From NCBI RefSeq assembly GCF_000022085.1, contig NC_011894.1, positions 584,501 through 648,500 on the forward strand: 64,000 bases of DNA. Direction: 5' to 3'. Shown here piece after piece: positions 36,313 to 59,351 of this stretch. Made by a program: the position numbers and the translations under genes. The stretch's first letter is position 1; every line of letters starts with the position of its first letter. The notes below the pieces were generated by a model, which was not told where the DNA came from, ran no database searches, and saw only the letters and a program-made list of their open reading frames with translations. The stretch comes from Methylobacterium nodulans ORS 2060. GTDB taxonomy: Bacteria > Pseudomonadota > Alphaproteobacteria > Rhizobiales > Beijerinckiaceae.

Positions 36313-37654
36313 ATTACCCACGCCTGTGATGGCGGATTCAGGCGCCGATGGTCTGGAGGATGGTGGCGAACGGCCTGGCGCCGGTGAGGCGGGCTGTGTC
36401 GACGACGGTGCGGAGATCGGCCTCTCCGTTGGCCGCCCACCTCGCACGGTAGCCGTTGGTGACCTTGCGCTGCACGACAGCCGGGCGCAGCAGGCGCTCG
36501 CAGCCGTTGTTGGTAATCTCGACTGTGCCGGGATGATCGAGGAAGACCAGGAGCTGATCGCGGGCGCGGCCGATCTTGGCCTGCAGATCGCGGGTCAGAT
36601 CGCAGCGGCTCGGGGCGGACAGGATCTCCGACAGCCGCCGCTCCAGCGCCCGGCGCTTGGCCGAGAGCGTCGAGGCCGCCAAGTCGGTGACGCGCTCGGC
36701 CAGCGCGAACACCGCCTGCAGCCAGAGCTGCAGGCGAAGTGGCCCCGGGTCGTCGCTGACCTCGACCGCATAGGCGACGTCACGGGCCAGATGCGCCAGG
36801 CAGGTCTGATGTTTGGCCGCGTGGCCTTGTTGGGCGGTGTAGCGATCAGAGATCCACACCACGGGCCGATGGCCGTCCATCATCTCGTGCACCACGACGG
36901 CGCCGCGCGTCGGGGAGGCGTGATGGACCACCGCCTCGGCTGAGCGGAACACCCAATGGTAGGCGGTGCAGCCCTCGATCCGGACGCCCGTCTCGTCGGA
37001 GGCGACGACCGCGGCCCGGCGCAGCGCCGACACGGCCGCCTCGCGGCCAGGACGGAAGTAGCCCTGTGCGCGGCGGAGCATGTTCATCAGCCCGCCCTGG
37101 CTGAGCGTGAGCCCGAACAAATCCGACAGCGCCGCCTGCAGCCGCTCATACGAGAGCGCCTGGAAGGTCTTGAGGTAGGTCGCCACCGCGTGCAGCCGCG
37201 GGCCGAACGGAGTGCCGCGCGCGGCCGAAGGCACCGGAGCGACGACGTGAGCCCCGCACGACGGGCAGAGAACCGCGAGCCGCTGATGCTGGGTGACGAT
37301 CGGCGTCACCTCGGGCAACTCGACCTGCTCGGCGACGCTGACGACCTCGGCGGGAAGATCACCGTGCAGAGCGCCGCCACAGCACGAGCAGCGATCCGGA
37401 CGATGCTCGACGACCGCATCGGGATCCCCGCTGATCACCCGGCTGTGGCCTTCGTGGCCGGGCTTGGCGCCGCCGGGTCTGGCCTGCTCGCGCCGCTCCT
37501 TGCGATCGGTGGAGGGCGGCTTGGAGGAGGTGCGCGAGGTCTTCTCTGGGCGCTGCAGCCGCAGCACCAGCTCGATCAGCTCCTCCTTGCTCAGGCGCTC
37601 AAGCTCGCGGCGGCTCATCCCACGAGGGAATCAGCGAAATCCGATCCCTGCAAC
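36313..37654 (-). mobile_element. IS66 family insertion sequence inside umuC
   Basis: The element contains one long transposase gene. The right edge is set by the point where umuC homology stops (after the codons for SARAN). The left edge is approximate: an imperfect inverted match (GATGGCGGATTC against GATCGGATTTC) is seen near both ends. No target duplication could be established because the flanks differ: umuC on one side, RTX gene on the other. Confidence 0.55.
36338..37618 (-). CDS. IS66 family transposase (TnpC type)
   Basis: A 426-residue transposase. It has the N-terminal helical segment KEELIELVLRLQRPEKTSRT, the spacer SSKPPSTDRKERREQARPGG, a zinc ribbon-like part (DRCSCCGGALHGDL; AVLCPSCGAHV) and the catalytic DDE domain with VVASDETGVRIEG (first Asp), PVVWISDRY (second Asp) and the region ITNNGCERLLRPAVVQRKVT with Glu. 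The C-terminal extra domain of long IS66 proteins is short here. It appears full-length, so it may be active. TnpA/TnpB accessory genes are absent, as in single-gene IS66 elements. Confidence 0.88.
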   Translation of the reverse strand: MSRRELERLSKEELIELVLRLQRPEKTSRTSSKPPSTDRKERREQARPGGAKPGHEGHSRVISGDPDAVVEHRPDRCSCCGGALHGDLPAEVVSVAEQVELPEVTPIVTQHQRLAVLCPSCGAHVVAPVPSAARGTPFGPRLHAVATYLKTFQALSYERLQAALSDLFGLTLSQGGLMNMLRRAQGYFRPGREAAVSALRRAAVVASDETGVRIEGCTAYHWVFRSAEAVVHHASPTRGAVVVHEMMDGHRPVVWISDRYTAQQGHAAKHQTCLAHLARDVAYAVEVSDDPGPLRLQLWLQAVFALAERVTDLAASTLSAKRRALERRLSEILSAPSRCDLTRDLQAKIGRARDQLLVFLDHPGTVEITNNGCERLLRPAVVQRKVTNGYRARWAANGEADLRTVVDTARLTGARPFATILQTIGA

Positions 37655-37924
37655 GTTGGCGCGGGCGCTCATGTCCCCATAGAGCGTGTAATTCGAGGAG
37701 AACACCCGCACCTTCTCGCGTCGGCAGAGGTCGCGGATCATGAAGTAGGGCGCGCCCATCTTGATCCCGAGCGCCTTGGCCTCGCTGGTACGGGCAATGG
37801 CGCAGCCACCGTTGTTGCTCAGCACGATCCCCGGCACGCCCGTGAGGCGCGGGTCAAACACCCTCGCGCAGGAGCAGTAGAAGCTGTTGCCGTCGACCAG
37901 CGCGATGGCGCGGCCATCGCAGGG
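37631..37924 (-). pseudogene. umuC: umuC, N-terminal fragment interrupted by IS66
   Basis: Reads CDGRAIALVDGNSFYCSCAR, VFDPRLTGVPGIVLSNNGGC, AIARTSEAKALGIKMGAPYF and SSNYTLYGDMSARAN, then runs into the IS. The catalytic Asp of DGNSFY is present. In the usual operon umuC starts at an ATG overlapping the end of umuD; here no start codon is found before CDGRA, so even the fragment is unlikely to be translated. Also note GG in SNNGG, where most homologues have NNDGC. Confidence 0.8.
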
Positions 37925-38369
37925 GGCTCGGCCGGACGTGGTGCCAGCGCACCGAGAACAGCAGCACGCCCCAGATCTGGCACTCCTCCAGATCCTCCAG
38001 GCCGAAGGCGGGCATCTCCGGGTTGTCGAAGGTGAGCGCGAGGCGGTTGCCGTCGAGCACGAGGCGCTTGAGGCTCATCTCGCCGTTCACAATCGCAACG
38101 ACGACAGCGCCGGGGCTGGGGTGGAGGGAGCGGTCGACGACGGCGAGGTCCTGGTCATGGATGCCGGCGCCCTTCATGCACCAGCCGCGGACGCGCCAGA
38201 TGAAGGTCGCGGCGGGGTTGGGGGCGAGCCAGCGCGGGAGCTCGAGGGCGCCCTCGGTGAAGTCCTCGGCCGAGGACGGGAAGCCGGCGCAGAGGGTGGT
38301 GCGCATGAACGGGATGCGCACCAGCCCACTCCAGTCTGCTGCCTGCTCGCCGACCCGGTAGAGACTCAC
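37854..38369 (-). CDS. umuD: UmuD-like SOS protein with Cys at the catalytic serine position
   Basis: A 171-residue S24-family protein. The self-cleavage site LCAGFPSSAEDF (A28-G29) is intact. The catalytic Ser lies in a G-D-S-M motif in UmuD; here the sequence is RGWCMKGAGI, so Cys64 replaces Ser and Trp63 replaces Asp. Lys101 (MSLKRL) is kept at the correct spacing of 37. The start GTG follows GGAGGG, and a LexA box lies 17 bases upstream. The frame continues about 25 residues past the usual end, overlapping umuC. UmuD' supports translesion synthesis with UmuC, but umuC is destroyed here, so relaxed selection is likely. Confidence 0.8.
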   Translation of the reverse strand: MSLYRVGEQAADWSGLVRIPFMRTTLCAGFPSSAEDFTEGALELPRWLAPNPAATFIWRVRGWCMKGAGIHDQDLAVVDRSLHPSPGAVVVAIVNGEMSLKRLVLDGNRLALTFDNPEMPAFGLEDLEECQIWGVLLFSVRWHHVRPSPLRWPRHRAGRRQQLLLLLREGV

Positions 38370-38385
38370 GCTGCCCTCCGCGTTA

Positions 38386-38400
38386 GAACGAAAAGAGAAC
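38386..38400 (-). promoter_or_regulatory. LexA (SOS) box upstream of umuD
   Basis: On the minus strand GTTC, seven bases, GTTC: the direct-repeat operator recognised by alphaproteobacterial LexA. It lies 17 bases before the umuD start, the expected place. Confidence 0.8.
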
Positions 38401-38559
38401 AAACAGGCCGGCGGTTCCGGGTCAAGGTGACGGCATCGGCGTTGTGGAGAGCGGGGATAGCCCGTGAGGGCGGGCGGGACCTGCCATGGCCGGATGAGAA
38501 TGGCTGACGAGCACTCAGTGCGACCCGCCGGCCTGAGTTCGACGGAGCCGTGGGGAACC

Positions 38560-38859
38560 GTGCCAACGTCGTCAGGATCTGGCGCCTACTGCGACCGCGT
38601 GCACGCACATGCCTGGCCGACAATTGGCTTCCCGCCTGTTCGCGCGAACCTCCCTACATCTACTGCGATGGCCGCACACGTCTTCAGGAACCAGCACTTG
38701 GTGCGACCCCATCCAGGCAGTAGGCATTCCCACGGCTCCCCCGTGCCAACGAACACAGAATCCAGCGGACCCAGCACAGGCGATTGCCTGACAAGCAGTT
38801 TCCCGCTCGTCTGCGCGAGCCTCCCTGCAACGAGCGCGAGTCGTCATCTACCAGGGCAC
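38560..38859 (-). repeat. Relic CRISPR units: degenerate repeats joined to leader copies
   Basis: Degenerate repeats are seen at 38560-38595 (four mismatches or so to consensus), 38671-38706 and 38743-38778 (both strongly decayed). Two are directly joined to copies of the leader: 38601-38658 (GCACGCACATGCCTGGCC and GCGAACCTCCCT) and 38781-38840 (TTTCCCGCTCGTCTGCG, CCTCCCTGCAACGAGCG). These lie at the leader-distal end of the array. Confidence 0.65.
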
Positions 38860-39459
38860 CTGCCAGCGAGATCAGGATCTGGGATCCGTTGCGACGCGAT
38901 CGGATCCTCCGCCTCGAGGAGCGCATGCAGTGCCAACGAGCTCAGGAACTGGCGCCCGTTGAGACCATTCCCGCGGTCCGATGGACCGAGAACAGATCGT
39001 GTGCCAACGCGATCAGGATCTGGCGCCCACTGCGACCCCCCGTGTCCACATCGACGGCCGCGATGCACCAGTGCCAACGCGCTCAGGATCTGGCGCCCAC
39101 TGCGACTTCCGGCGACCCTGGATCTGCACGGCTACACAACTGTGCCAACGCGCTCAGGATCTGGCGCCCACTGCGACTTGGCCCCGCCGGCACCGGGTAG
39201 GAGACCCGCCATGTGCCAACGCGCTCAGGATCTGGCGCCCACTGCGACATAGTTCTGGCTGTTGGAGGCCAGATTGTTCTGGTGCCAACGCGCTCAGGAT
39301 CTGGCGCCCACTGCGACCTGACCTTCACGCGTGTCTACTCGGGCGTGGCCAAGTGCCAACGCGCTCAGGATCTGGCGCCCACTGCGACGTCCAGGCCGAG
39401 TTGGGCAAGGTCCGCCGGATCCTGTGCCAACGCGCTCAGGATCTGGCGCCCACTGCGAC
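38860..39459 (-). CRISPR. Type V-B CRISPR array, nine repeats, eight spacers
   Basis: Repeats of 36 bases start at 38860, 38930, 39001, 39071, 39142, 39213, 39282, 39353 and 39424. The last six are identical; the first three carry substitutions. Spacers are 33-35 bases. Read on the minus strand the repeat begins GTCGCAGTGGG and ends GCGTTGGCAC. This matches the Cas12b repeat style (GTCG at the start, TGGCAC next to the spacer), so transcription is taken as minus, the same as cas12b. The degenerate repeats then lie at the distal end, as expected. Confidence 0.95.
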
Positions 39460-39535
39460 GGCGGGCACGCACATGCCTGGCCGACAAGCGGTTTCCCGCC
39501 TGTCCGTGCGAACCTCCCTGCAATGAGCGCGAGGT
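39460..39535 (-). promoter_or_regulatory. CRISPR leader
   Basis: Sequence between the tracrRNA candidate and the first repeat, containing ACGCACATGCCTGGCC and GCGAACCTCCCTGCAATG. It is recognised as a leader because two diverged copies recur next to degenerate repeats at 38601 and 38781. Confidence 0.6.
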
Positions 39536-39627
39536 CCAACCGATGCACAACGGGCCAGAGCCGAAACCCAAGCGAAATCCGGACTCTCACTCGAGCGCGA
39601 ACGTTCGAGGAGATGCATGAGCGCTTG

Positions 39628-39737
39628 AGGTTCGCGCAGCCGCAGTGTCAAAGAGCCAGATCCAGATAAATCGTTTCGGCCGGTGGAGCTGGTCTCTTAG
39701 GCCACCCCCGAGGCACATCGAACCGACGAACGCAGGC
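39628..39737 (-). ncRNA. Predicted Cas12b tracrRNA
   Basis: Starts just after the cas12b stop codon. On the minus strand an outer stem TCGGTTCG/CGAAACGA (one mismatch) encloses TGTGCC and a hairpin GGTGG/CCACC, the same plan as the tracrRNA of Alicyclobacillus Cas12b. It is followed by a two-part anti-repeat: GGATCTGGC pairs with GCCAGATCC of the repeat, and CACTGCGGC pairs with GTCGCAGTG (one G-U), with a short internal bulge. Exact ends are unknown. Confidence 0.75.
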
Positions 39738-39738
39738 C

Positions 39739-41715
39739 CTATAGGCCAGCAGCAACAGCATAGCTTGCTTCGGCCTGAGCGTCCAAGTGCGATCTCAAGC
39801 GCCCCACCGTTTTTGCGCGGACGATCGACCAGAAGGCCGCTGACGGGAACCAGAGATCGGTCGGCAGCACGACACCGGACGGATCGCGGAAGAAGACGAC
39901 GCGCTCGCCACTCCGCTCGAGCAGTTCCTCCTCAAGGCCCTGCAGCTCTTCATCCTCCGCTGCAGCCGCCTCATCACGATCCTTCTGTGCGCCAGAGAGG
40001 CGGCGCCACTCTGCCTCAGTCGTTTTGCGCCACTGACATGAACCGCTGTCATGTCCCGTTGGCTCGAGATACCCAAACCCGCCGAGAGCGCCCGCTTGGC
40101 GCTTGCCCATGCTCAGGGGAGCCCACCGGATCTGACCTTGGACCGCCGACTTCCCGCATGGGAGGCGGAACGCGTCGCCGTGCTGCGTCCAGAAACGCCT
40201 CTGCAGGTTCTGGGCGGCGTTGATGTCGGCGTGGATGCGGGACAAGCCATTGGCGTTCAGGCAGACGAACACCTCTCCCCCGGGGAGAGGAACGAGATCG
40301 CCCGGCTTGTAGCCGTTGAGATCGAGGCCCTCGTTCTCTCGCTTGAGCAGCTCAAGGAAGCCTTGATCCTCGAATTCCCTCTTGCGCAGGGGATGACACC
40401 GAATCCCTGGCGTCATCGTGGAAGCGTGATAGCGGCTCGAGAATGCAGCCGGGGTATCGAGGCAGAATGCGGCAAGAGGCTGACGCGCATGCTTGCGAGC
40501 GCTGTCCGGATCCCGTCGATCTTGGATCCCGTAGATCTCGCCCTGCATGCCGACCATGTCGGGCACGCCACGATGGGCCCACTGCATGAGCTGGGAGTTC
40601 TCTCGACGAGGGCGGTCGGTCCGCATGCGGTACCGGCTCAGATCCTCGAACAGGATGACGTGACAAGGGGCGTGCTTCTGCACCCAGTACCCGAACTCGT
40701 TGCGCTGGAAGCCTCGAGCCGCCTGGACGATCAGGTCAGCACCCGTCTTGAGCCTGTCGTCCTTCAGGGCGTCGATGTGATCCAGGAGGTCCTTGGCGAA
40801 GACACCCCCTCGTTCGCGATCGAGCCGGCGGATGTCACCCGAGGCCCGACCCGCCAGGGACCAGCTCTGAAGGAAACGGCGGACGTCGGTCAGGTGCTGG
40901 ACCGACCACATCGACTTGCCGGCGTACTTGCGGTCTTCGCGGGATCGCGTCCGGCTGCGCCACTCGGAGACGACGGCGCCGAACTCGGTGCGATACAGGC
41001 GAGCAGCCCGTTTACAGGTGTCCTGCCAGAGCGGATCAGCGACGGTCGAGCACCGCTCCAACTCAGAGAGCAGGCTGGCCTCGAACGGCCATAGCTCCTT
41101 CGCCGACCAGGCCTCGCGGAGGTCGGTGAGATAAGCGTCTCGCTCCCCCTTCTGGACGGTCGCTGCTCGTAGAAGTTGGCGGTGCCGGTTCAGCCCACCA
41201 CGGAGCTGACGGAGTTCGGCGTCAGCCTGAGCCCGCCACTGTTGGCCAGCAGCCCCGACGTTCTCACCCGGCAGCTCGAGCGTGAAGGACCTCTCGTGTA
41301 CCGCCCACAGCCGGAACTCGGCGAGTGGAAACGCGACGCCGGTGGTTGGGGCCGTATCCTTCAACTCGAACACTGAGCACGTCGCGAACGAGCGAACTCC
41401 GAGGTCGATGGAAAGGACTCGAAGGCCGGCTTGGACACTGTCAGCGTGCTTGCTCTTGGCTCCCTTCGCCGACTGGAAGTGGAAGGCAGCCCTTGCAAGC
41501 TGATCGTCAACGCCGTCCGGTAAGACGTGAGCGACGTCGAGCGCCAGCTTGAGGAACGCTGAACCGATATCGCCAGCATCGACGCGATCACGAATGCGAC
41601 CACGCAGATGGTCCCAGTTCAATAGAAGGTCAGCGCTCCCAAGCTTGGCTTCGAACACCTCATTCATGTTGGTGCAGTAGGTGATCTTCTGCTGCTTGTC
41701 CTGCTTCGTGAGCAC
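39739..41715 (-). CDS. cas12b: Cas12b (C2c1) effector, C-terminal part with the RuvC nuclease
   Basis: A 658-residue frame that carries the catalytic half of Cas12b. RuvC-I is LRVLSIDLGVRSFATCSVF (Asp104 of this frame), RuvC-II is HVILFEDLSRYRMRTDRPRR (Glu357) followed by SQLMQWAHRGV, and RuvC-III is IHADINAAQNLQRRFW (Asp497). Nuc-domain landmarks AAFSSRY and PGIRC lie between, and FFRDPSGVV with FWSIVRAK near the end match AacCas12b. The frame is open further upstream to the C6 tract at 41755 (PYKFSLAPSDQLQGVV), so the GTG at 41715 is probably not a real start. About 20 residues after EIYGI look inserted compared with Aac. RNA-guided DNA cleavage is the role if it is produced with the N-terminal part. 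Confidence 0.92.
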   Translation of the reverse strand: MLTKQDKQQKITYCTNMNEVFEAKLGSADLLLNWDHLRGRIRDRVDAGDIGSAFLKLALDVAHVLPDGVDDQLARAAFHFQSAKGAKSKHADSVQAGLRVLSIDLGVRSFATCSVFELKDTAPTTGVAFPLAEFRLWAVHERSFTLELPGENVGAAGQQWRAQADAELRQLRGGLNRHRQLLRAATVQKGERDAYLTDLREAWSAKELWPFEASLLSELERCSTVADPLWQDTCKRAARLYRTEFGAVVSEWRSRTRSREDRKYAGKSMWSVQHLTDVRRFLQSWSLAGRASGDIRRLDRERGGVFAKDLLDHIDALKDDRLKTGADLIVQAARGFQRNEFGYWVQKHAPCHVILFEDLSRYRMRTDRPRRENSQLMQWAHRGVPDMVGMQGEIYGIQDRRDPDSARKHARQPLAAFCLDTPAAFSSRYHASTMTPGIRCHPLRKREFEDQGFLELLKRENEGLDLNGYKPGDLVPLPGGEVFVCLNANGLSRIHADINAAQNLQRRFWTQHGDAFRLPCGKSAVQGQIRWAPLSMGKRQAGALGGFGYLEPTGHDSGSCQWRKTTEAEWRRLSGAQKDRDEAAAAEDEELQGLEEELLERSGERVVFFRDPSGVVLPTDLWFPSAAFWSIVRAKTVGRLRSHLDAQAEASYAVAAGL

Positions 41716-41752
41716 GACACCCTGCAGCTGATCGGACGGCGCCAGCGAGAAC

Positions 41753-43147
41753 TTATAGGGGGGTGTCGATGCAACGGCCGTCGTCGGCAGCCTTCAGGAG
41801 CGGAAGAGTGATCTGCAGCTCACCCCCAACGGCCTCGAGTTGGTAGTTGCGGAGGTTGCTCCCACCTTCGGCTTCCCACTGCGCTGAACGGGGGTGAGCA
41901 ACCGGATCGGGCAGCGTCATCAGCGCCGTGTCGCGGGATCTCTCGACCAGCCGCTCCATGGCATTGACGCGCGCAAGAACCCCGACCGCATCAGCATGGC
42001 CGTCCGCCCAGACGTGATGGTTCTCAGGGCGAGCAAGCCAGCGGAAGAGATCCGGATCGCCGAAGCGCCCGCGCTTGCGCGTCTGTTCCGTGGCGATGAT
42101 GGCATGAAGTGCCTCTTGTCCCTTGTCTCCGCTGCGGCGCCACTTCTCGCGCAGGTCGTCCCAGCCCCGCGTCATGCGGACGGTGATGAGGAAGTCGCGC
42201 TCGCCCATCGGTAGACCGAGCTGCGCGATCTGCTCTTTGCGGGCGCGCTCATACTCGCGCAGCGTGCTGACCTTGGTCGCGAGATCACCCTTCAGGTGCG
42301 CGGAGCTGAACTGCTCAAGCCGCTGGACTCGAGCGGTGTGCTCGTCCCGGGCTCGCGTGCACCAACTCTCCCAGGACAGGAGATGGCCGACGGCAAGGCG
42401 GAAGGCGAGACGATCCCAGGGTGTGAGGCTGCTCCTCGACCCGAGGATGCGCGGTGCGAGCGACGGCTGAAAGAGCGGGAGAACACCGAAGTCCCTCTTC
42501 AGGGCCTTGATGATCGCCGAGGTGCCGCTGGCGGCCTCCTTCCTCAGTTCGCCCAACTTGCGAGCGAACTCACGCGGCCAGATCGGATCCTGTTTGGCGG
42601 CGAGACTGCGCCACCGCGGAGGCGCTCCCGTGTCGACGAGCCACGCTCGACCAGCATCGGTGTCGAGCCATGCATTCGCTTCCGCGAGAACGGCAGGATC
42701 GATCGGATCCGATGCCGGCACCTGATCGAGCCAGCTCGGAGCAGGCCTGTCGACCTTGTTGAAAGCTTCCAGAAAGCCGGCGCTGTTCGGATCCGTCAGC
42801 GGGCCGAGAAAAGCGTTCGCGAGTTGGGCATTCGCGTCGTCGGCGAGAACGATCGCCTCATACAAGGACCGGCACAATCGTACAATCTCGTCGTCAGATC
42901 CGCCTGACCCACCGTTCCGGGCCTGCGCCTCACGGGCTTGTTCGAGCAGCTGGCGTCGGACCTCGTCTTGAGGCACAGAGCCGTCACTCGTGCTGTAGGT
43001 CTCGCCCCGAAGAAGCAGCAGCTTCTGCTCGTAGAAACTGACCGCCTCATTGACGAGACGATGCGTGCTCCAGAGCGCTTGGGCCTTCTCCAGCTCGGAC
43101 GGGTGCCGAGGAACGACGATCTTCAGTTTAAGCGAGCGAACAGGCAT
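41753..43147 (-). CDS. cas12b: Cas12b (C2c1) effector, N-terminal part (recognition lobe)
   Basis: A 464-residue frame that matches the first 460 residues of Cas12b. The WED start is MPVRSLKLKIVVPRHPSELE, HRLVNEAVSFYEQKLLLLRG; REC/PI landmarks are GGSDDEIVRLCRSLYEAIVL, TPWDRLAFRLAVGHLLSWES, RGWDDLREKW, RGRFGDPDLFRWLARPENHH and TLPDPVAHPRSAQWEAEGGS. Reading ends at CIDTPL and TAA. The stop comes just after six C; a +1 shift there continues into the C-terminal frame with no gap. No Shine-Dalgarno is obvious. cas1, cas2 and cas4 are absent upstream. Confidence 0.92.
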   Translation of the reverse strand: MPVRSLKLKIVVPRHPSELEKAQALWSTHRLVNEAVSFYEQKLLLLRGETYSTSDGSVPQDEVRRQLLEQAREAQARNGGSGGSDDEIVRLCRSLYEAIVLADDANAQLANAFLGPLTDPNSAGFLEAFNKVDRPAPSWLDQVPASDPIDPAVLAEANAWLDTDAGRAWLVDTGAPPRWRSLAAKQDPIWPREFARKLGELRKEAASGTSAIIKALKRDFGVLPLFQPSLAPRILGSRSSLTPWDRLAFRLAVGHLLSWESWCTRARDEHTARVQRLEQFSSAHLKGDLATKVSTLREYERARKEQIAQLGLPMGERDFLITVRMTRGWDDLREKWRRSGDKGQEALHAIIATEQTRKRGRFGDPDLFRWLARPENHHVWADGHADAVGVLARVNAMERLVERSRDTALMTLPDPVAHPRSAQWEAEGGSNLRNYQLEAVGGELQITLPLLKAADDGRCIDTPL

Positions 43148-45538: not shown

Positions 45539-46297
45539 TCAGGCCGAGAGCCAAGCGAGCGCACGCCGCCACCAGGGCGCCACGGTAGGCGCAGGAGCGG
45601 TCGACAGCGTGGGGCCAGAAGAAAGCCCGCCGGAGGGGGCGGGCTGGGCGACTTTTGACGGGGACACGTCGGCGTCGGCCACCAGAGGCGGTGGAGCCTT
45701 ATCCGGCAATGACTTACCGCCGGGCGAGTTTTGACCTGGATTTGATCGCTCGGCCGCGAGGGCTCGGGCCAGCATCGCCTCGACCGTGTCGGCCGAGACG
45801 AGCGCCCTGTTGCGCCCGTCGCCCGCATAGTAGCTCTGGCCGCGCATGACCGTGCGCTTCCGGCCCTTGGTGGTCGCGAGGACCGGCAGGCTCGCCCATT
45901 CCTTGGCGAGGCTGAGCGCGAAGCCGGCCATTGTCAGCCGGCCGGCGATGAAGCTGTCCCAGCCGCGGCGACGCAGCAGGTGCATCGCCATCCGGTCCTG
46001 GAGGTCGGGGGAGAACAGTTCGCGGCCGGTCAACCCCATCTCGCCCTCGATGTCCTGGATCGTGCCGGGCTTGTCGAGGGTGTCGCGCATGAACTGGTAG
46101 CGGCCGCAGGCGCTCGATCCGAAGCGCCTGGTCCAGGCAGGCTGCTCGGCCTCGACCTGATCGAGCGTCCACGTGGTGATGTCGATGCCGAGCTTCGCCT
46201 GGCCGTTGGCGTAGATCGTGCCGTAGCCGTTGGGCGCCTCGGTCTGCCCGATGAAGTCGAGCACGATCGCGGCGCCCGGGGAGATGGAGCGGTCCAT
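45539..46297 (-). CDS. Phage endolysin, GH104/lambda-R-like muramidase
   Basis: A 252-residue protein. The N-terminal domain has VLDFIGQTEAPNGYGTIYAN (with the catalytic-type Glu) and SSACGRYQFMRDTLDKPGTI, the G-R-Y-Q-F signature of lambda endolysin-type lytic enzymes, then LFSPDLQDRMAMHLLRRRGW. The C-terminal 90 residues are Pro/Ser/Ala-rich and end in WWRRALAWLSA, an amphipathic segment that may touch membranes. It would degrade the peptidoglycan for host lysis. The start at 46297 has GAGGG upstream. A GC-rich inverted repeat lies within the Pro-rich coding part (about 45617-45645). Confidence 0.8.
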   Translation of the reverse strand: MDRSISPGAAIVLDFIGQTEAPNGYGTIYANGQAKLGIDITTWTLDQVEAEQPAWTRRFGSSACGRYQFMRDTLDKPGTIQDIEGEMGLTGRELFSPDLQDRMAMHLLRRRGWDSFIAGRLTMAGFALSLAKEWASLPVLATTKGRKRTVMRGQSYYAGDGRNRALVSADTVEAMLARALAAERSNPGQNSPGGKSLPDKAPPPLVADADVSPSKVAQPAPSGGLSSGPTLSTAPAPTVAPWWRRALAWLSA

Positions 46298-46461
46298 GAT
46301 GACCCTCACGGTGCGGGAAAAAGGAATCGGGATCCGGGACGCCCGGCGCGTGAGGCCGGGCCAATCGAAAGGAGAGCGCCCCCGCGCAGGCGTGAGGCTG
46401 CGGACCGCCGCACAGCAGCGCGGCGGCCATCACGGCGGACAGGGGCCACGGGACGGCGCGA

Positions 46462-46686
46462 TCAGTCCCGGCGCCGCTCGGCCAGGAAGCGCGGGCGGGT
46501 CCCGGCGGGCAGGAAGTCGCGCATCGCGCCGGAAGCGACCAGCGCCTCGCCCTCGGCCAAGCAGGCCGAGGGGATCGCCGAGCTGCACGGGCGCGGGATG
46601 ACATCGAGCGCCGTATTGCGGGTGCAGTCCTGGATCGCCAGCTCGACCGGGCAGACCAGGACGACGGTCAGGAGCAGCATGGGCAT
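46462..46686 (-). CDS. Small exported phage protein (possible outer spanin/lysis accessory)
   Basis: A 74-residue protein. It begins MPMLLLTVVLVCPVELAIQD, a short hydrophobic segment, followed by Cys residues (DCTRN; PRPCSSAIPSACLAEGE) and a basic end. GGAGG is five bases before the ATG. Position next to the endolysin suggests an Rz1-like role, but a clean lipobox is not seen. Confidence 0.45.
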   Translation of the reverse strand: MPMLLLTVVLVCPVELAIQDCTRNTALDVIPRPCSSAIPSACLAEGEALVASGAMRDFLPAGTRPRFLAERRRD

Positions 46687-46703
46687 GCGAGCCTCCGGGC
46701 AGC

Positions 46704-46724
46704 AAAAAGCCGCCCGGAGGCGGC
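46704..46724 (-). terminator. Terminator after the second tail fibre gene
   Basis: On the minus strand GCCGCC-TCCG-GGCGGC followed by TTTTT, 57 bases past the fibre gene stop. An almost identical terminator is at 61264-61284. Confidence 0.75.
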
Positions 46725-46780
46725 GTCGGAGAAGGCGCAGCCCGTCCGGCATCGGACAGGCCGCGGCAGGCGTGTCGGGG

Positions 46781-49135
46781 TCAGGGCGTTTCGTAAGTCA
46801 GGCTGAATAAGACGCCGCCGGCCGAAGGCGCGCCGCCGTCGTAGCGATGCACGAACGCCACACCGCCGCCGGCCGCAGCCAGTCCGGCCAGCAGGACGCC
46901 CGTGCCGATGTCGCGCCCGTACAAGGGCGCGTCGGCCGCGACGGGGACCGGCACGGTGACGTTGATGCCGTCCGCGCAGGTATTGGCGGTCAACTGCGCC
47001 TTGACGGTCACGGACACCGTCTTGCCGATGCGCTTGTAGCGGGCCGTCACCGTGCCCACGGTCAGGGAGCCGGTCGTTACGCAGGACACGGTGGGCACAT
47101 ACGCCGTCCAGGCCGCATTATCGAGGACCGTCGTGCCGCCGACCTTGTAGGTGCCGGTCACGTCGGCGCTGGCGCCGGAGAGCGCGCCCGTAGCACTGAC
47201 GCTCCCGGCTGAGACCGCCCCGGCAATGCTGGCGCTCGCCCCCGACACCGCGCCGGTCGCCGCGAGGCTGGCGCCCGAGACCGCCCCGGCCGCCGTCACG
47301 CTCTGCGCGGTCACGCTCTGAACGGTCTCATTACCGGCGCCGTCGACCTTCCAAAGGGTCGTGCCGTCGCTGGTCACGGCAAAGGCGGCAATCGAAGGCA
47401 TGCCGTTGTACGTGCCGTTGACCTGGTAGCCGTACTTCGGGATCCCGGCAAAGAGATCCGGCTGCACCAAGAACGACGCCTCGCCCGCCCCCATCGACAC
47501 GAAGCCGTAAGAGACCGATCCACGATTGAGGTAGCAAGTATTGATGTTGTTCGTGACCCCGACGCAGTCGGCAAAGGTGCCGCCCTCGTCGAGCTGATGC
47601 TTCGCTTTGAGTGCGACGCCAGTTCCCGATGCTGTCGCCGGATACTTGAGCGTCAGGGTCGAGTTGGCCGTATCGACGGCCGTCACGAGGTTGCCGGCCG
47701 GAATGCCCACCCCATAGACCATGATGCCCGAGCGCCATACCGAGATGTTCGTGACGCCCGTGATGGTGCGGCTGCTCGCGGTCACATTGCCCGTGCCGCC
47801 GGAGATCTCGGTGGGAATAAAGGGAGGGCCGGCATTGAAGATATCACCTTCGACGCCGACGCCCTTGCCGAACTCGGTGCCAGCCGAGATGACCAGGGTC
47901 ACGGTCCCCGAAGCGGTCGCCGCCTTTTCCAGGGTGATCGTATTGCCGGTGTAGTTGACGTCGGTGATGACAGTGTTCGGCTGGATACCAGGCCCGGCCA
48001 CAAGCTGACCGCCCGGATAGAGGCCGTCGGTGCTGCTGACCGAGACCGTCTTCGAGTCGGAGACCGTCGTGCCGGTGACCTTGATTGCGTTGAGGAAGGT
48101 GGTCTCTAATCTATTCCAAAGTTTATCCTGCGGGTTAATGAACGCCATCGTTCCGGCCGGCGTTCCGGCCGAGCCGCCGCGCTGCGTCCATTGGCTAACC
48201 GTGATGCTTGTGACCTGTCCATTTCCGTTCGTCGTCCAGGATTCGATCTGCCCGTTGTAGCGGGCCGGCGTGTCATTCGTGCGGATCCACATTCCCACGC
48301 CGAGATAAACGGTATCGCTAAGCGTGATCGGCGTCGTGGGAACGAAGGTGGTCGCCGTGAACGTGCCGGCGACCGCGGCCATCAGCGGCACGCTGTCGAT
48401 CTGCGTACAGAGCGCGTAGGCACCAAGCTCGTCGTATGCGCTCGCCTGCCCGGGGTGCGTGAAGCCCGCGACGCAGCCGGGCCTATCGACATTCGCCGAG
48501 ACGGTCAGCGTGCCCGAGGTGTTGAGCGAGCCATAGGTGTGCCGATTGGTCAACGCCACCGATCCATCCGGCGCGTAGAGCGTCGCGGTTGCCAGCGGCT
48601 TGATGTCATAAAAGCCGGAGTAAGGGCCGTTGCCGAGCCCGATCCCCTGCACCCACGACGGATAGGGGCCGGCGTAAGGGTTCGAGGCGCGGGTCGCAGC
48701 GCTGGCCTGGAGGCGGTCCGGCGTGACAGTGAATTTTCCGGCCTGCCACGTCCCGAGCGTCGGGCCGTTGAGCAGCGAGACGGCGCCCCCGCTGATGACC
48801 GGCACGGCCGAGAACAGATCCTTGACAGCCTGCGCCGACCCGCTGCCGCTCGGCGTGACGACGAGGTCGCCTGCATCGCCCTGCTCGACAGCTTTCTTAC
48901 CGGCCACGCTGGCGTTGAGCAGGGTCGCGACGCCGAGCGTGTTATCGGTCGCGCGAAAGAACAGCTTCTTGTCGGTCGAGTTGATCACCAACTCGCCTGG
49001 CCCGAGCGCGTAAGCGCCCGTTAGCGGTGGCTCGCCTCCAGAGTTGATATAGCGGCGCAGGTCGAGGGACACAGCAGGCGCCGCGAGGACGGCCACCGCG
49101 GCCGCGAGCCAGACCGCACGGGAGAGGTTTCGCAT
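46781..49135 (-). CDS. Phage fibre-like protein with an N-terminal signal peptide
   Basis: A 784-residue protein. Residues 1-24 form a typical signal peptide (RAVWLAAAVAVLAAPAVSLD). The body is beta-rich with many Thr, Val and Gly. Around residues 630-690 there is a repeated pattern (VTAAGAVSGASLAATGAVSG and similar), as seen in trimeric fibre shafts. The C-terminal about 100 residues (YKRIGKTVSVTVKAQLTANT) resemble the phage tail-fibre C-terminal fold. It lies between gene D and the lysis genes. A signal peptide is unusual for a virion protein, so it might instead be exported by the lysogen. Confidence 0.6.
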   Translation of the reverse strand: MRNLSRAVWLAAAVAVLAAPAVSLDLRRYINSGGEPPLTGAYALGPGELVINSTDKKLFFRATDNTLGVATLLNASVAGKKAVEQGDAGDLVVTPSGSGSAQAVKDLFSAVPVISGGAVSLLNGPTLGTWQAGKFTVTPDRLQASAATRASNPYAGPYPSWVQGIGLGNGPYSGFYDIKPLATATLYAPDGSVALTNRHTYGSLNTSGTLTVSANVDRPGCVAGFTHPGQASAYDELGAYALCTQIDSVPLMAAVAGTFTATTFVPTTPITLSDTVYLGVGMWIRTNDTPARYNGQIESWTTNGNGQVTSITVSQWTQRGGSAGTPAGTMAFINPQDKLWNRLETTFLNAIKVTGTTVSDSKTVSVSSTDGLYPGGQLVAGPGIQPNTVITDVNYTGNTITLEKAATASGTVTLVISAGTEFGKGVGVEGDIFNAGPPFIPTEISGGTGNVTASSRTITGVTNISVWRSGIMVYGVGIPAGNLVTAVDTANSTLTLKYPATASGTGVALKAKHQLDEGGTFADCVGVTNNINTCYLNRGSVSYGFVSMGAGEASFLVQPDLFAGIPKYGYQVNGTYNGMPSIAAFAVTSDGTTLWKVDGAGNETVQSVTAQSVTAAGAVSGASLAATGAVSGASASIAGAVSAGSVSATGALSGASADVTGTYKVGGTTVLDNAAWTAYVPTVSCVTTGSLTVGTVTARYKRIGKTVSVTVKAQLTANTCADGINVTVPVPVAADAPLYGRDIGTGVLLAGLAAAGGGVAFVHRYDGGAPSAGGVLFSLTYETP

Positions 49136-49144
49136 GGGGGGATC

Positions 49145-49876
49145 TCAGGCAGCGGGCGGGTTGAGCACGAAAGTCGAGAGCGCACCGCCGACCCGAGCGG
49201 CGAGTACGAAGGTCGGGGGCGTCGTCGAGGTGTCGCAGATGAGTGACCACTGCCCGTCCGCGAGGTCGCCGAGCGCCGGCGCTGTCGTCTTGGCGAGCAA
49301 TCGCCCCTTGAGGGCGGCCGCCGCGATGGCGTCCCCGATCGGATTGCCGGGCTGGGCCTTGGTCGCGTCCGAGGTGTTGTCGAGATGGTTCGTGCGCGCG
49401 TCGAGCGCAGCGAGTTCGCTCGCCGCCGCCTTGTCCGCCAGGGTGGCGGACAGGCCCGCGAGCGCCGTCTGCAGCTTGCCGAGGGTGTCGTGCTGTGCGT
49501 CGGCGGTGCCGACGAGGGCAGCCCGCAGCCCGGCGAGCGTGGCGCCTTGGGCCGAGAGGCTGGCCACGAGCGCGGCGTCGCGCGCGTCAACGTACTGCGC
49601 GATCCCGCCGCCGACGCGGGTCAGAAACACCTCCAGGGCCGCGATCACGATAGCCCGGTCGAGCGACCCGCGCCGCGTCTCGATCAGGTCCCCGTCGAGC
49701 AAGGCCGGCGGCGGGGGCGGCTGCGGCGGCTCCTGGCCGGTCGGCGCGATGGTGCCGAGGTCGAGCTCGTAGCGCGCCTCCACGTCGGTCAGCGCGATCT
49801 GGGAGCCGATCGCGACCTCCTGGCCGGCGACCCAGCCGCCCGACGCGGCGAGCACGGTGTAAAGCATGGTCGCCAT
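49145..49876 (-). CDS. Phage tail-region protein with coiled coil
   Basis: A 243-residue protein. The first 55 residues look globular (MLYTVLAASGGWVAGQEVAI), then a Pro-run (PPQPPPPP), then a coiled coil (DARDAALVASLSAQGATLAG to ALDARTNHLDN) and a compact C terminus with DLADGQWSLICDTSTTPPTF. It is likely a minor structural or fibre-attachment protein. It lies nine bases before the fibre gene and is probably co-transcribed. The start MATML has AGGA eight bases upstream. Confidence 0.6.
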   Translation of the reverse strand: MATMLYTVLAASGGWVAGQEVAIGSQIALTDVEARYELDLGTIAPTGQEPPQPPPPPALLDGDLIETRRGSLDRAIVIAALEVFLTRVGGGIAQYVDARDAALVASLSAQGATLAGLRAALVGTADAQHDTLGKLQTALAGLSATLADKAAASELAALDARTNHLDNTSDATKAQPGNPIGDAIAAAALKGRLLAKTTAPALGDLADGQWSLICDTSTTPPTFVLAARVGGALSTFVLNPPAA

Positions 49877-49905
49877 GCGTCCGATCCTGCAGGTGTGTCG
49901 GGGGA

Positions 49906-50934
49906 CTATTCGGCCGAGCGGTCGTCGCTGCCGGCCGACCCTTGCGGCTGCTTGATGCTCAGCGTGGTCTCGGCGCCGGACCGGCTGACCTTGTGGGTGA
50001 CGCTCTCGATCCGGTAGCTGCCGTCGACTCCGGGCCGCGTGCCGATGACCTCGCAGGTGCCCTCGGCGCGGGCCTCGACGGCGAGCAGCAGCGTGACTTC
50101 GCCCGAGCCACCCTCGCGCTCGGATTCCGTCTTGCGGCCCTTGCCGGCGTCCTTGGCGTGGTCCTGGGTCGCGCGCGGGGCCGCCGGCAGGTCGAGCACC
50201 TCGGGCGCGCCGGGCGCGTTGCCGATCTCGACGTCTTCCTGCTTCCACTTGGCTTCCTTGCGGTCGTACCAACGCACCCTGGCCTTGGCGTAGCGCGGGC
50301 GCGTCTCCTTGGGCGTGATCCGCCAGCTGACGAGGTTCTGGCGGCGGATAGCCCGGACGGTCGGCATCGTACCGCCGCCGGGCGTGCCGCCCTGCCCGCG
50401 CTTCGCGAACACGGCCGTGTCGCCCTGGATTTTGAATGTTGCGCCCAGCTCCTCCGCCAGCTCCTGCCCAAGCTGAAGAAAGGTCCTGCCGTCCGTCGAC
50501 CAGTACGGGCGCTTGATCGACGCGAAGCTCTTGTCGACCTTGACGTCCTTCAGGCCCGCCGCCTTCGCGGCGTCCTTGAGGAAATCTTCCAGGGTCGCGT
50601 CGTCCTTGTGCTTGTGCAGGCGCTCCTTGACCTTGCCCCGCTTGTCGACGCTCTTGCAGCTCACGGTGAGCTGCATGCCCGAGCCGCGGGCGGCGCTGCT
50701 CTCGGCGCTGTCGACCACGCCCTTGAAGACCGAGACCCCCTCCAACTCGATCTCGACCGGGTCTCCCTTGGTCGGGAGCTTCACCTGCCCGTCCGTATCG
50801 TCGAAGACGATGCTCGCGCTGTCGGACTTGCCGCCCGCGTTGTCCGTGGTCTCGATGCTCTCGATATACGGGTTCATGCGGTCGGAAGCGTCGAGCCCAT
50901 TGACGAGAACGCGCCACGACGTTGCGAGCGACAT
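49906..50934 (-). CDS. Phage late control/tail hub protein D (P2 gpD-like)
   Basis: A 342-residue protein of the gpD/gp27-like hub family: ESIETTDNAGGKSDSASIVF, DPVEIELEGVSVFKGVVDSA and YWSTDGRTFLQLGQELAEEL, then ATFKIQGDTAVFAKRG. The C-terminal half has the typical LVSWRITPKETRPRYAKARV and a final SYRIESVTHKVSRSGAETTL strand pair. gpD forms the baseplate hub that links tail tube and spike. It is preceded by X and U as in rhizobial P2-like phages. Confidence 0.88.
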   Translation of the reverse strand: MSLATSWRVLVNGLDASDRMNPYIESIETTDNAGGKSDSASIVFDDTDGQVKLPTKGDPVEIELEGVSVFKGVVDSAESSAARGSGMQLTVSCKSVDKRGKVKERLHKHKDDATLEDFLKDAAKAAGLKDVKVDKSFASIKRPYWSTDGRTFLQLGQELAEELGATFKIQGDTAVFAKRGQGGTPGGGTMPTVRAIRRQNLVSWRITPKETRPRYAKARVRWYDRKEAKWKQEDVEIGNAPGAPEVLDLPAAPRATQDHAKDAGKGRKTESEREGGSGEVTLLLAVEARAEGTCEVIGTRPGVDGSYRIESVTHKVSRSGAETTLSIKQPQGSAGSDDRSAE

Positions 50935-50946
50935 GACGGATCCTGG

Positions 50947-51174
50947 CTAGTCGAACAGGCTGACGACCTTGCGGGTCGTGGGCTTGGTTGTTGGCAGGTC
51001 GGGCAGGATCACGCGGGTCAAGAGCGGGATCTCCGGCCCCAGCGCAGCGAGGCCCGGGTTGAGCTTGAGGGCTGCCGAGAGCATGGCTGCGGTGTTGCCG
51101 GCGCGGCCGTAGGCGCGCCAGAGCAGCAGGTCCAGCACGGCATACCGGTCCTGCACGATGACGGTTAGGGGCAT
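50947..51174 (-). CDS. Phage tail protein X (gpX)
   Basis: A 75-residue LysM-like tail protein: DRYAVLDLLLWRAYGRAGNT, LNPGLAALGPEIPLLTRVIL, PDLPT. The L-x-W-R-x-Y-G and P-x-L-P-x-G/T-x-x-I-x-L-P patterns are diagnostic of gpX, which sits in the tail hub. It lies five bases after gene U. Confidence 0.85.
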   Translation of the reverse strand: MPLTVIVQDRYAVLDLLLWRAYGRAGNTAAMLSAALKLNPGLAALGPEIPLLTRVILPDLPTTKPTTRKVVSLFD

Positions 51175-51178
51175 CGGC

Positions 51179-51616
51179 TCACCCGAACAGGGATGCGACG
51201 AGGGAGGCGATCAGGCCAGCGCCCGCGTCCTCGCCCGGGTCGTCCACGCGCTCCAGCTTGATCTCGTACTTGACCTTGTAGGCGACGCCGTCCGGGGCAA
51301 TCGCGTCGGCATGGCTGTCCTTGATGGACGTGATGACGTACCAACCGAGGGCATAGCCGTCGCCTCGCATGACATACTGCGGCGAGCCGCTGTTCTTGAG
51401 ATCTCGCGCCAGTTCCAGCTCGGACATGCCGCCGATGTGAAAGGGCAGGAACTCGCCCGACAGCGTGAGCACGTCGTCGGCGGGTCCCTCGTGCTCATAC
51501 CCCCGGCGGCGGTTGAGCAGGTCGTGCTTGGCGTAGTCCTCGCCATCCTCGCGCTCGGCCCCCGTAACCGAGAACGGGAAGGTGTCGAAAGTCAGTACGC
51601 CCACGGAATACTGCAC
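51179..51616 (-). CDS. Phage tail protein U (gpU)
   Basis: A 145-residue protein: VGVLTFDTFPFSVTGAERED, a loop, HDLLNRRRGYEHEGPADDVL, TLSGEFLPFHIGGMSELELA and YALGWYVITSIKDSHADAIA. These are the landmarks of gpU, a tail terminator/completion protein that caps the tube near the tape measure. Gene order T-U-X-D matches P2-like phages of Rhizobiales. Confidence 0.85.
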   Translation of the reverse strand: MQYSVGVLTFDTFPFSVTGAEREDGEDYAKHDLLNRRRGYEHEGPADDVLTLSGEFLPFHIGGMSELELARDLKNSGSPQYVMRGDGYALGWYVITSIKDSHADAIAPDGVAYKVKYEIKLERVDDPGEDAGAGLIASLVASLFG

Positions 51617-51634
51617 CGAGCCCTCCCGCTCTCG

Positions 51635-56266: not shown

Positions 56267-56377
56267 CAATATTCATACCTTTAGGACAAGAGGCGCGGAG
56301 ACGAGATTCCCGCTTGCGATACAGCAGATGAGACGACAAGACTCCTGCAGCCATCCAGGCTGGAGGAGGACAAACAC

Positions 56378-56809
56378 ATGCTCTCTGGGCTTGTCCTGCT
56401 GGCGCTTGCCGAGATCGGCACTGGCGCGCCAACGGTACAAATTGTAACTCCTAGAAAATTGATAGACAATCCAAGATCATATCTGCATCAGAAGACTTTA
56501 GTCCAAAATATTCACTGCATTGATGTGCCAAGGGGGCGCCTCATCTGTATTGTTCCCATCGGCGGACAAATTATCCGACTTGAGGGGAGTGCACTGGGGG
56601 CGAAGACTCCACTTAGTATCGCTGAGCGGCTAACCGGAGATTACAAAGGTACCGCGAACATCAGCAATGCGGCATGCGTGGTCGATGTGGAGATCGAGCC
56701 CACCAGCGTCGTAAAGGATATGCTTGATACGCCTTCAGGATCGATGCCGCTTCTTACGGTCTACTCACCGCTGATCGAGATGTATCGGCCGCGAGGGCGG
56801 GAGCGTTGA
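56378..56809 (+). CDS. Prophage cargo: small exported protein
   Basis: A 143-residue protein with a short hydrophobic start (MLSGLVLLALAEIGTGAP). The mature part is beta-rich: PRSYLHQKTLVQNIHCIDVP, GRLICIVPIGGQIIRLEGSA, ACVVDVEIEPTSVVKD. GGAGGAGG precedes the ATG. It is transcribed against the tail genes, is more AT-rich, and sits between E' and T, where P2-like phages have no gene. This makes it a lysogeny-expressed cargo (moron) candidate. No family is recognised; an OB-like fold is possible. Confidence 0.55.
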   Translation: MLSGLVLLALAEIGTGAPTVQIVTPRKLIDNPRSYLHQKTLVQNIHCIDVPRGRLICIVPIGGQIIRLEGSALGAKTPLSIAERLTGDYKGTANISNAACVVDVEIEPTSVVKDMLDTPSGSMPLLTVYSPLIEMYRPRGRER

Positions 56810-56816
56810 GCGCCCC

Positions 56817-57704: not shown

Positions 57705-57874
57705 GAACTGGTCTCCACGGGCTCCGGCCGACCAAGCCCGGAGCGCATCAGGGGTCGCATGAAGCGACACCGGAGCCCGTGAAGCTCGGATGTCGCGCCC
57801 TCCGCCAAGGTCGCGGCGGAACTGTCAGAAGGGGGGTGGCCGCAGCTGGAGATGTCGAGGAGCTGCGACTGGCT

Positions 57875-58225
57875 TCAGCGTTCGTCCAAGCCGTCGTCGT
57901 CGAACTCGTCGCCGTCCGGCTCGTCGTGCTCGTCCTCCACCTCGCGGTCCATCGTGCCGCCATCCCCCCAGTGGATCTGCGACGTGCTGAGGATGTGGTA
58001 GCGGTCGCCGTCGATGACGGTCACCCCGAACTCCGCCGTGCGCTCCGGGGAGCCGAGGGAGGGCTCGTCGTCGCCCTCGTCCTCCAGGTCGGGGTCGCCG
58101 TCGGCCTCGTCCAGATAGGCGATCAGGGTCTCAATCGTGTCCTCGATCAGACGGCGACGCGCCAAGCGGCGGCGCGGATGCATGGCGGTTGGGCGCGTGC
58201 TATCGTCCCCGGAAGCCTGTGGCAT
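57875..58225 (-). CDS. Small acidic protein, paralogue of 43480-43839
   Basis: A 116-residue protein with the same core as the 43.5-kb copy (RRLIEDTIETLIAYLDEADG, DGDRYHILSTSQIHWGDGGT) but a different N terminus (MPQASGDDSTRP). The two copies are nearly identical at DNA level over about 170 bases. Function unknown; negative charge suggests a DNA-mimic or partner role, which is only a guess. It is cargo within the tail operon. Confidence 0.6.
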   Translation of the reverse strand: MPQASGDDSTRPTAMHPRRRLARRRLIEDTIETLIAYLDEADGDPDLEDEGDDEPSLGSPERTAEFGVTVIDGDRYHILSTSQIHWGDGGTMDREVEDEHDEPDGDEFDDDGLDER

Positions 58226-58308
58226 CGAGCTATCCCTCGTCTGCGGGTTAGGGCCGGGTCGGAAGTAGCCGCTTCCGCCCGGCCTGATTTTAGGTTAAAC
58301 CTTAAAGC

Positions 58309-59293: not shown

Positions 59294-59351
59294 GGGGTTC
59301 CCGGTCCCGGATTGGTGAGAGCTGCGGCTTTCAGGCCGCAGCCCGCTGGTC

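What the first reader, a model, noticed from the sequence alone, without database searches (positions are those of the whole stretch)
38560..43147. Minimal type V-B (Cas12b) CRISPR locus in an alphaproteobacterium, without adaptation genes
Seen: cas12b, a tracrRNA candidate, a leader and an array of nine repeats lie on one strand within 4.6 kb. Upstream and downstream there is no cas1, cas2 or cas4; the flanks are a wrecked umuDC operon and a prophage. Known: most described V-B loci carry cas4-cas1 and cas2 next to cas12b. Inference: this locus can no longer acquire spacers, or borrows adaptation proteins from elsewhere.
Basis: partly seen in the sequence, partly recalled or inferred. Interest (0 to 1): 0.9.

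Follow-up and report, generated by a model that had tools for sequence, protein, structure and literature searches.

The report
Frameshifted Cas12b CRISPR without adaptation genes
A bacterium carries a stripped-down Cas12b CRISPR immune system that has guide RNAs and stored spacers but no genes for adding new ones, and its cutting enzyme gene is broken in two by a one-letter shift, so it is probably a frozen and largely silenced memory rather than a new kind of system.

Summary
The locus is real. Two adjoining minus-strand frames (41753-43147, 39739-41715) match Cas12b profiles above cut-off, followed by a tracrRNA, a leader and nine contiguous repeats (38860-39459), plus an isolated relic repeat at 38560-38595. 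No cas1, cas2 or cas4 was found in the window; the genome's only two cas1 loci belong to a type I-C locus (cas1 itself in two frames) and a type I-E locus, both far away. A Cas12b tree suggests a lineage trait: the sister loci in a Geobacter and a Desulfobulbaceae genome (100/100 clade) also lack them. More consequential, cas12b is split by a one-base frameshift at a C6 run, separating the nuclease half from the guide- and PAM-binding half. One spacer matches the bacterium's own chromosome at 34 of 35 bases, in a stretch with phage-like genes; a perfect 9-bp tandem duplication there separates the match from an otherwise suitable TTC PAM. Best reading: a horizontally acquired, adaptation-less V-B system, once active, now frozen and probably off, unless the frameshift is an assembly error. 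Ordinary in kind; moderate interest.

The parts
41753..43147 (-). cas12b, upstream frame (464 aa): start codon, N-terminal (recognition/PAM side) half
   Evidence: PDLC01245 positions 1-413, E 3.4e-122; NF033949 212 bits; PDB C2c1 chains E 3e-35
39739..41715 (-). cas12b, downstream frame (658 aa from a GTG): RuvC half with the three conserved acidic residues
   Evidence: PDLC01245 461-1127, E 2.1e-215; PDB 5wti E 4e-78; D104, E357, D497 of this frame invariant in an alignment of 4
41758..41763 (-). C6 run at which the two frames part; the only C or G run of 6 or more in the 3409-bp gene
   Evidence: profile hits abut across it (positions 493 and 500 of NF033949)
39637..39735 (-). tracrRNA candidate: GTGCC motif (39712-39716) complementary to the repeat's GGCAC end, stem, then anti-repeat (about 39680-39637); ends approximate
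39460..39540 (-). leader next to the first repeat
   Evidence: three-copy block; extent approximate
38860..39459 (-). CRISPR array: nine 36-bp repeats, eight spacers of 33-35 nt; repeats decay away from the leader
39178..39212 (-). spacer S4, 34 of 35 bases identical to the bacterium's own chromosome at C7:3593158-3593192
38743..38840 (-). relic unit: second leader copy with a very decayed repeat (13 mismatches; weak, as unrelated places in the window reach 13-14)
38560..38673 (-). relic unit: third leader copy with one repeat (4 mismatches); 83% to 39424-39537 over 114 bp
37854..38402 (-). flank: UmuD-like S24 peptidase, followed by a truncated umuC
   Evidence: PF00717 E 7e-20; umuC by eye
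36338..37618 (-). flank: IS66 transposase next to the truncated umuC
   Evidence: PF03050 E 2e-34
45539..61248 (-). flank: prophage genes (endolysin, tail protein, tape measure, anti-repressor, tail sheath)
   Evidence: PHROG matches in 6 of 10 proteins scanned

Best explanation
This is a type V-B CRISPR locus that reached this alphaproteobacterium by horizontal transfer and belongs to a V-B lineage whose loci consist of cas12b, tracrRNA, leader and array, without cas4-cas1-cas2. When intact it would work as other V-B systems do: tracrRNA pairs with the repeat, Cas12b uses the dual guide to find 5'-TTN-flanked DNA and its RuvC site cuts it. Shown here: gene content, a tracrRNA motif that follows the repeat, conserved catalytic residues, the array, missing adaptation genes here and in the two sister loci, the frameshift in this assembly, and one spacer that matches a stretch of the own chromosome with phage-like genes. 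Inferred: that the frameshift is real and switches interference off or very low, that the array is frozen, that the locus came by transfer, and that the self-match is tolerated because cas12b is broken and/or because the 9-bp duplication took the PAM away.
For: Profile matches over the cut-off for both frames; RuvC residues conserved; a tracr motif complementary to the repeat's last 5 nt in 19 of 21 loci, 238-312 nt before repeat 1, following changes in the repeat (GTGCC/GGCAC; GTGCT/AGCAC in 3 loci, two of them near-identical; GTCCC/GGGAC in 1); window + Geobacter + Desulfobulbaceae clade 100/100, all three without adaptation genes; Cas12b over the cut-off in 1 of 111 genus genomes, 1 of 397 (order sample) and 1 of 385 (class sample), each time only this one; only two cas1 loci in the genome, I-C cas1 in two frames, I-E cas1 whole; self-match E 2.5e-9 in 8.8 Mb.
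Against: The frameshift lies in a homopolymer and rests on one genome sequence, so it may be an assembly error; neither half has a further stop or frameshift, and GC by codon position is alike in both halves, as for an intact or recently broken gene. Six identical repeats at the leader end suggest the array was renewed not long ago, against a long-frozen array. No protospacer was found in phage, plasmid or viral collections with the searches made, so a history of phage defence rests on S4 alone.
Confidence: 0.68

Rival explanations
1. The frameshift is a sequencing or assembly error in a C6 run; cas12b is whole and the system is interference-competent, with the self-match tolerated only because its PAM is displaced.
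For: Homopolymer position; the rest of both frames is open; the profile is continuous across the junction. The self-target already lacks a TTN PAM (flank GGC).
Against: The assembly looks finished (8 contigs, completeness 100). Other cas sequences of this genome look decayed too: the I-C cas1 is out of frame at a place that is not a homopolymer (itself unconfirmed), and a second copy of the cas12b start is a truncated relic.
Confidence: 0.3
2. The locus still acquires spacers in trans, using the adaptation proteins of a co-resident type I system.
For: All three genomes of the adaptation-less clade carry a Cas1 of type I kind elsewhere: I-C in the Geobacter genome, I-E in the Desulfobulbaceae genome, both here. 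The Geobacter array has 25 repeats without cis adaptation genes. In A. acidoterrestris V-B, acquisition needs only Cas1 and Cas2, and trans supply is proposed for type V subtypes that lack them (passages of PMC9419969).
Against: The I-C cas1 here is out of frame; the I-E Cas1 gives no tblastn hit on V-B Cas1 at 1e-3; the type I repeats seen look unlike the V-B repeat. Of 8 genomes whose V-B loci showed no cas1, 3 had no Cas1 match anywhere (draft genomes). No base rate of co-resident type I systems was measured.
Confidence: 0.2
3. The 9-bp duplication at the self-target has nothing to do with CRISPR; the spacer came from a related element that never had it, or was acquired without PAM selection.
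For: Three perfect 9-bp tandem duplications lie within about 530 bp there, so the stretch is prone to them; one further mismatch shows that the chromosomal copy is not exactly the source; the one relative found has neither the duplication nor a TTN flank (ATC); loss of Cas4 activity abolishes most PAM choice in V-B (passages of PMC9419969).
Against: The homologous 5' leader in another genome of the genus has no such duplication, and the duplicated unit sits exactly between a TTC and the spacer match; over 182 kb of this genome such duplications are about one per 30 kb (6 found, 2 of them in this same stretch).
Confidence: 0.5

Closest known systems
Type V-B (Cas12b/C2c1) of Alicyclobacillus, Bacillus, Laceyella and relatives
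   Same: Effector family, RuvC residues, tracrRNA with the GTGCC-type motif, repeats ending in GGCAC or AGCAC, array downstream of cas12b
   Different: Those loci have cas4-cas1 and cas2 between cas12b and the array; here they are absent and cas12b is in two frames
V-B loci of the Geobacter MAG (L023) and Desulfobulbaceae MAG (L024)
   Same: Closest Cas12b (51 and 49% identity), array directly after cas12b, no adaptation genes found in about 8.5 kb before and 10 kb after
   Different: Their cas12b is one open frame
Minimal type V loci without adaptation module (subtype V-U)
   Same: Effector plus array only (passages of PMC6452270)
   Different: V-U effectors are small; the effector here is full-size Cas12b, 1122 aa in two frames
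Cas12b3 (V-B3), inactivated V-B variant
   Same: V-B with impaired interference (figure legend of PMC12669027)
   Different: There key RuvC residues are substituted; here the RuvC residues are kept and the frame is broken

Membership tests
Type V-B CRISPR-Cas | Cas12b effector | tested here: met
   NF033949 212 and 404.8 bits, cut-off 150; PDLC01245 E 3e-122 and 2e-215
Type V-B CRISPR-Cas | RuvC catalytic residues (three acidic; E848 and D977 of A. acidoterrestris are the RuvC mutants named in PMC9419969, D570 is recalled) | tested here: met
   D104, E357, D497 of the downstream frame invariant among 4 sequences; their equation with the named residues is by motif, not by structure
Type V-B CRISPR-Cas | Effector encoded by one intact reading frame | tested here: not met
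   Two frames offset by one base at 41758-41763; of 30 other loci A. dauci and A. cellulosilyticus are also interrupted
Type V-B CRISPR-Cas | tracrRNA with anti-repeat | tested here: met
   Motif and position shared with 18 of 20 other loci that have an array (not L040 or L051), covarying with the repeat end; anti-repeat energy -43.7 against -37.1 +/- 3.0 for simple shuffles, 1 of 60 as low
Type V-B CRISPR-Cas | CRISPR array with repeats of about 36 nt ending in GGCAC or a near form | tested here: met
   relatives
Type V-B CRISPR-Cas | cas4-cas1 and cas2 in the locus (usual, not universal) | tested here: not met
   No hit in the window; genome-wide only I-C and I-E cas1. Of 30 other loci 22 have cas4 and cas1, 4 have none, 4 are cut by contig ends
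Type V-B CRISPR-Cas | RNA-guided cleavage at 5'-TTN targets | not testable with these tools
   Needs experiment
Phase-variable or frameshift-expressed gene | Long homopolymer tract (recalled: usually 8 or more) or conserved slippery site | tested here: inconclusive
   Only a C6 run; the sister genes are one frame; conservation of the site itself was not examined

The most novel reading that the evidence does not exclude
There is a stable adaptation-less V-B lineage that is maintained for its effector and refilled in trans by co-resident type I adaptation machinery, and in this strain it has been caught in an autoimmune conflict: a spacer against a resident phage-like element was accommodated by two separate changes, a PAM-displacing 9-bp duplication in the target and a one-base shift at a C6 run in cas12b, the latter possibly leaky or reversible.
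Probability: 0.12. Interest if true: 0.65.

Novelty: new member of a known kind. Interest (0 to 1): 0.38.

Why it matters
Most V-B loci keep an adaptation module between effector and array. A clade in three hosts of two phyla without it, each host with a type I Cas1 elsewhere, makes adaptation in trans testable for a class 2 system. The self-matching spacer with a displaced PAM and a broken effector is a compact natural case of possible autoimmunity avoidance. If the frameshift is only a sequencing error, the loci are still simple single-gene Cas12b systems from outside the well-studied Bacillota.

Tried and rejected
Looked for cas1/cas2/cas4 tied to the locus: none. Looked for the same repeat elsewhere in the genome: none at 3 or fewer mismatches. 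Protospacers: array against phages and plasmids, best E 0.3-1, taken as chance; viral contigs with a 19-mer of S4, a 23-mer of S3, a peptide-coded pattern of S2 and a 20-mer of the S4 target's start region: 0 hits each; S1 and S5-S8 were not sought there. Array against the own genome: 36 matches, of which only the array itself and S4 are below E 0.027. Array against 111 genomes of the genus: 17 others have a match at E 0.01 or less (6.6e-5 to 9.4e-3); among the loci fetched, besides S4 only S1 and S2 with 8 mismatches each lie within 9 mismatches of a whole spacer, taken as chance; the best other match (6.6e-5) lies mainly in a repeat. The leader homologue in G479 has E 0.0021 by itself and was kept because the likeness goes on upstream. 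A guess that S2 comes from an elongation-factor-like gene was dropped (one search found the pattern only in the array). The S4 target stretch has no phage match; 301 bp around it give weak DNA matches in 27 of 60 other genomes (E 5e-6 to 1e-3), nearly all in the ORF and none in the protospacer; the 74-aa ORF as protein matches only itself in 79 genomes and nothing in viral contigs. Rfam: nothing credible near the array. The first genome-collection scan with a single sequence found none; the alignment found 29. Phage-encoded Cas12b: one very distant hit, 21% identity, not followed. No tRNA in the window or at the target. Structure prediction was not run. Anti-repeat energies are not above shuffles for L026 (17 of 60 as low) and L048 (15 of 60), weakly so for L023 (4 of 60), clear for L024 and L042 (0 of 60). 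No tracr motif was found for L040 or L051; for L051 only the three motif forms of the others were looked for.

Literature: searches for the strain or genus with Cas12b/C2c1, and for likely names of the protein, gave nothing or 8 irrelevant listings; (strain with CRISPR) listed 9, of which I read the CRISPR passages of one (PMC4161386), which speak of another species; two searches were seen as listings, from which I read passages of PMC12669027, PMC9419969 and PMC6452270, no paper whole. I recall that early C2c1 surveys (2015-2017, not held) list a C2c1 of this strain; I could not check this.

Full report
Where it lies. The window is G000:C7:584501-648500 of an 8,839,022-bp genome in 8 contigs. 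The lengths match, from recall and not from any call, the chromosome of Methylobacterium nodulans ORS 2060.

Two minus-strand frames, 43147-41753 and 41715-39739, match Cas12b and nothing better. Behind them lie a tracrRNA candidate, a leader and nine contiguous repeats; the last three have 1, 5 and 9 mismatches, as expected at the leader-distal end. Further on, two relic leader-repeat units lie at 38743-38840 (weak) and 38560-38673 (83% to the working leader plus first repeat). No adaptation gene was found in the window, and the array repeat is found nowhere else in the genome at 3 or fewer mismatches.

The tracrRNA. In the known V-B tracrRNA a GUGCC motif pairs with the GGCAC end of the repeat (recalled from the Cas12b structures). 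I looked for the reverse complement of the last five repeat bases in the 600 bases before repeat 1 in the window and in the 20 other loci in which one search found an array (17, 4 more). It is present in 19 of 21; L040 lacks it, and for the distant L051 only the three forms of the others were tried, without a hit. One five-base match in 600 is expected about 0.2-1.2 times by composition, so presence alone means little; but in all 19 one occurrence lies 238-312 nt before repeat 1, and the motif follows the repeat when it changes: GTGCT with AGCAC (L033, L046 and the near-identical L049) and GTCCC with GGGAC (L048). In the window the motif is at 39716-39712, followed by a stem and an anti-repeat at about 39680-39637 (-43.7 kcal/mol; simple shuffles -37.1 +/- 3.0, 1 of 60 as low).

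cas12b is in two frames. The frames are offset by one base; profile matches abut across the junction (NF033949 to 493 and from 500), so little but the frame is lost. The junction holds a C6 run at 41763-41758, the only C or G run of six or more in the gene; the window has 12 such runs and none of seven. The upstream half holds the recognition part, the downstream half all three RuvC acidic residues. Of the 30 other Cas12b loci, A. dauci and A. cellulosilyticus are also interrupted; the Geobacter and Desulfobulbaceae genes are single frames. The shift may be a real inactivation or an error in one assembly; I cannot tell which.

Adaptation genes. I gathered 29 Cas12b loci from genome contigs plus one plasmid locus (A. 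dauci). With the window that makes 31. A. dauci Cas4, Cas1 and Cas2 were used as tblastn queries: 22 loci have cas4 and cas1 (21 of these cas2 as well); L032 has cas4 and then the contig ends; L025, L029 and L047 end too early to judge; L023, L024, L026, L048 and the window have none. L026 is weak evidence, since its contig begins inside cas12b and runs only 3 kb past it; L048 has 1.8 kb before and 10 kb after. In these five the array follows cas12b directly. In a tree of all 31 (1107 columns) the window, L023 and L024 form a clade with support 100/100, and the state 'none' needs at least three changes, one of which rests on L026. So the missing module looks like a trait of this lineage, not damage by the neighbouring IS or prophage. 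Loss rather than primitive absence is my inference, because the module is present in the outgroup and most of the tree.

Could adaptation come from elsewhere? The genome has two cas1 loci: a I-C locus at C7:864 kb, whose cas5c, cas8c, cas7, cas3 and cas4 match but whose cas1 lies in two frames, and a I-E locus at C7:5495 kb with a whole cas1 and a large array. The Geobacter genome has a I-C type cas1 and cas4, the Desulfobulbaceae genome a I-E type cas1; of the 8 genomes whose V-B loci showed no cas1, 5 have a Cas1 match elsewhere and 3 do not. PMC9419969 (passages only) reports that V-B acquisition needs Cas1 and Cas2 but not Cas12b, that Cas4 gives the PAM preference, that the A. acidoterrestris cas4 is itself frameshifted, and that co-occurring systems most likely serve type V subtypes lacking cas1 and cas2. 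Trans supply is therefore possible but unshown here.

A self-matching spacer. Spacer S4 (39212-39178) matches C7:3593158-3593192 at 34 of 35 bases (E 2.5e-9). By eye the match covers the ribosome-binding site and start codon of a 77-codon ORF in a stretch with phage-like neighbours (HTH regulator phrog_1373, phrog_12823 E 5e-55, phrog_30874 E 9e-14); the ORF itself has no PHROG match, no integrase was seen there, and the stretch has no match in the phage collection. A homologous 5' leader (12 mismatches over 35 ungapped, 88% over the aligned 34 with a gap, E 0.0021; a GTCCTAAwTT..GGACAT stretch shared upstream) lies in another genome of the genus about 0.6 kb from a phage-type integrase. In the window's genome the spacer match is preceded by GGC, not TTN, but a perfect tandem duplication of nine bases sits exactly between the match and a TTC. 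The relative lacks the duplication, though its own flank is ATC, not TTN. Such duplications number 6 in 182 kb of this genome (the I-E array stretch, with none, left out; one stretch overlaps the window by 6.5 kb), and 2 of the 6 lie in this same stretch; together three lie within about 530 bp here. PAM escape is suggestive, not shown.

Origin. Cas12b is over the profile cut-off in 1 of 111 genus genomes, 1 of 397 of the order sample and 1 of 385 of the class sample, each time this genome. The nearest relatives are in a Geobacter and a Desulfobulbaceae genome (51 and 49%). A 617-bp relic of the cas12b start (96.4% identical to 42726-43342, start codon lost, stop at codon 139, 20 coding changes as 5/2/13 by codon position) lies on a 458-kb contig of the same genome. 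This fits arrival by mobile DNA and an earlier second allele; both are inferences.

Verdict. A genuine V-B member in effector, tracrRNA and array; it fails the usual adaptation module (not universal) and the intact-effector test. It would work like V-B if whole. The most likely state today is a frozen array with little or no interference.

Noticed in passing
G000:C1:390016-390632 (L136 8017-8633): Truncated second copy of the cas12b 5' region, 96.4% identical to window 42726-43342, on a 458-kb contig beside a gene that looks like katG (by eye); start codon lost and an internal stop.
   Followed up: partly
L012 8230-9467 (C7:864.2-865.5 kb): The type I-C cas1 of this genome is in two frames, at a place that is not a homopolymer, while the other I-C cas genes match their profiles.
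   Followed up: partly
L013 4459-8277 (C7:5490-5494 kb): Large type I-E array of some 50-60 units beside a whole I-E cas1; its spacers were not compared with anything.
   Followed up: no
L018 7451-10880 (Alicyclobacillus dauci plasmid NZ_CP104065.1); L043: cas12b of A. dauci in three frame pieces, annotated as two overlapping cas12b genes; in L043 (A. cellulosilyticus) cas12b is interrupted by about 1.4 kb.
   Followed up: no
L052 4675-5203 (C7:3592.7-3593.2 kb): Three perfect 9-bp tandem duplications within about 530 bp, against about one per 30 kb over the stretches sampled.
   Followed up: partly
window 33910-36237: 775-aa protein with RTX calcium-binding repeats (PF00353), next to the IS66 element.
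   Followed up: no
leader ends of the window, L042, L045, L018, L048: The last bases of the leader before the first repeat look alike (GCCCGCC or similar) in the window and in Alicyclobacillus loci that have their own cas1, but not in L023 or L024; by eye only.
   Followed up: no
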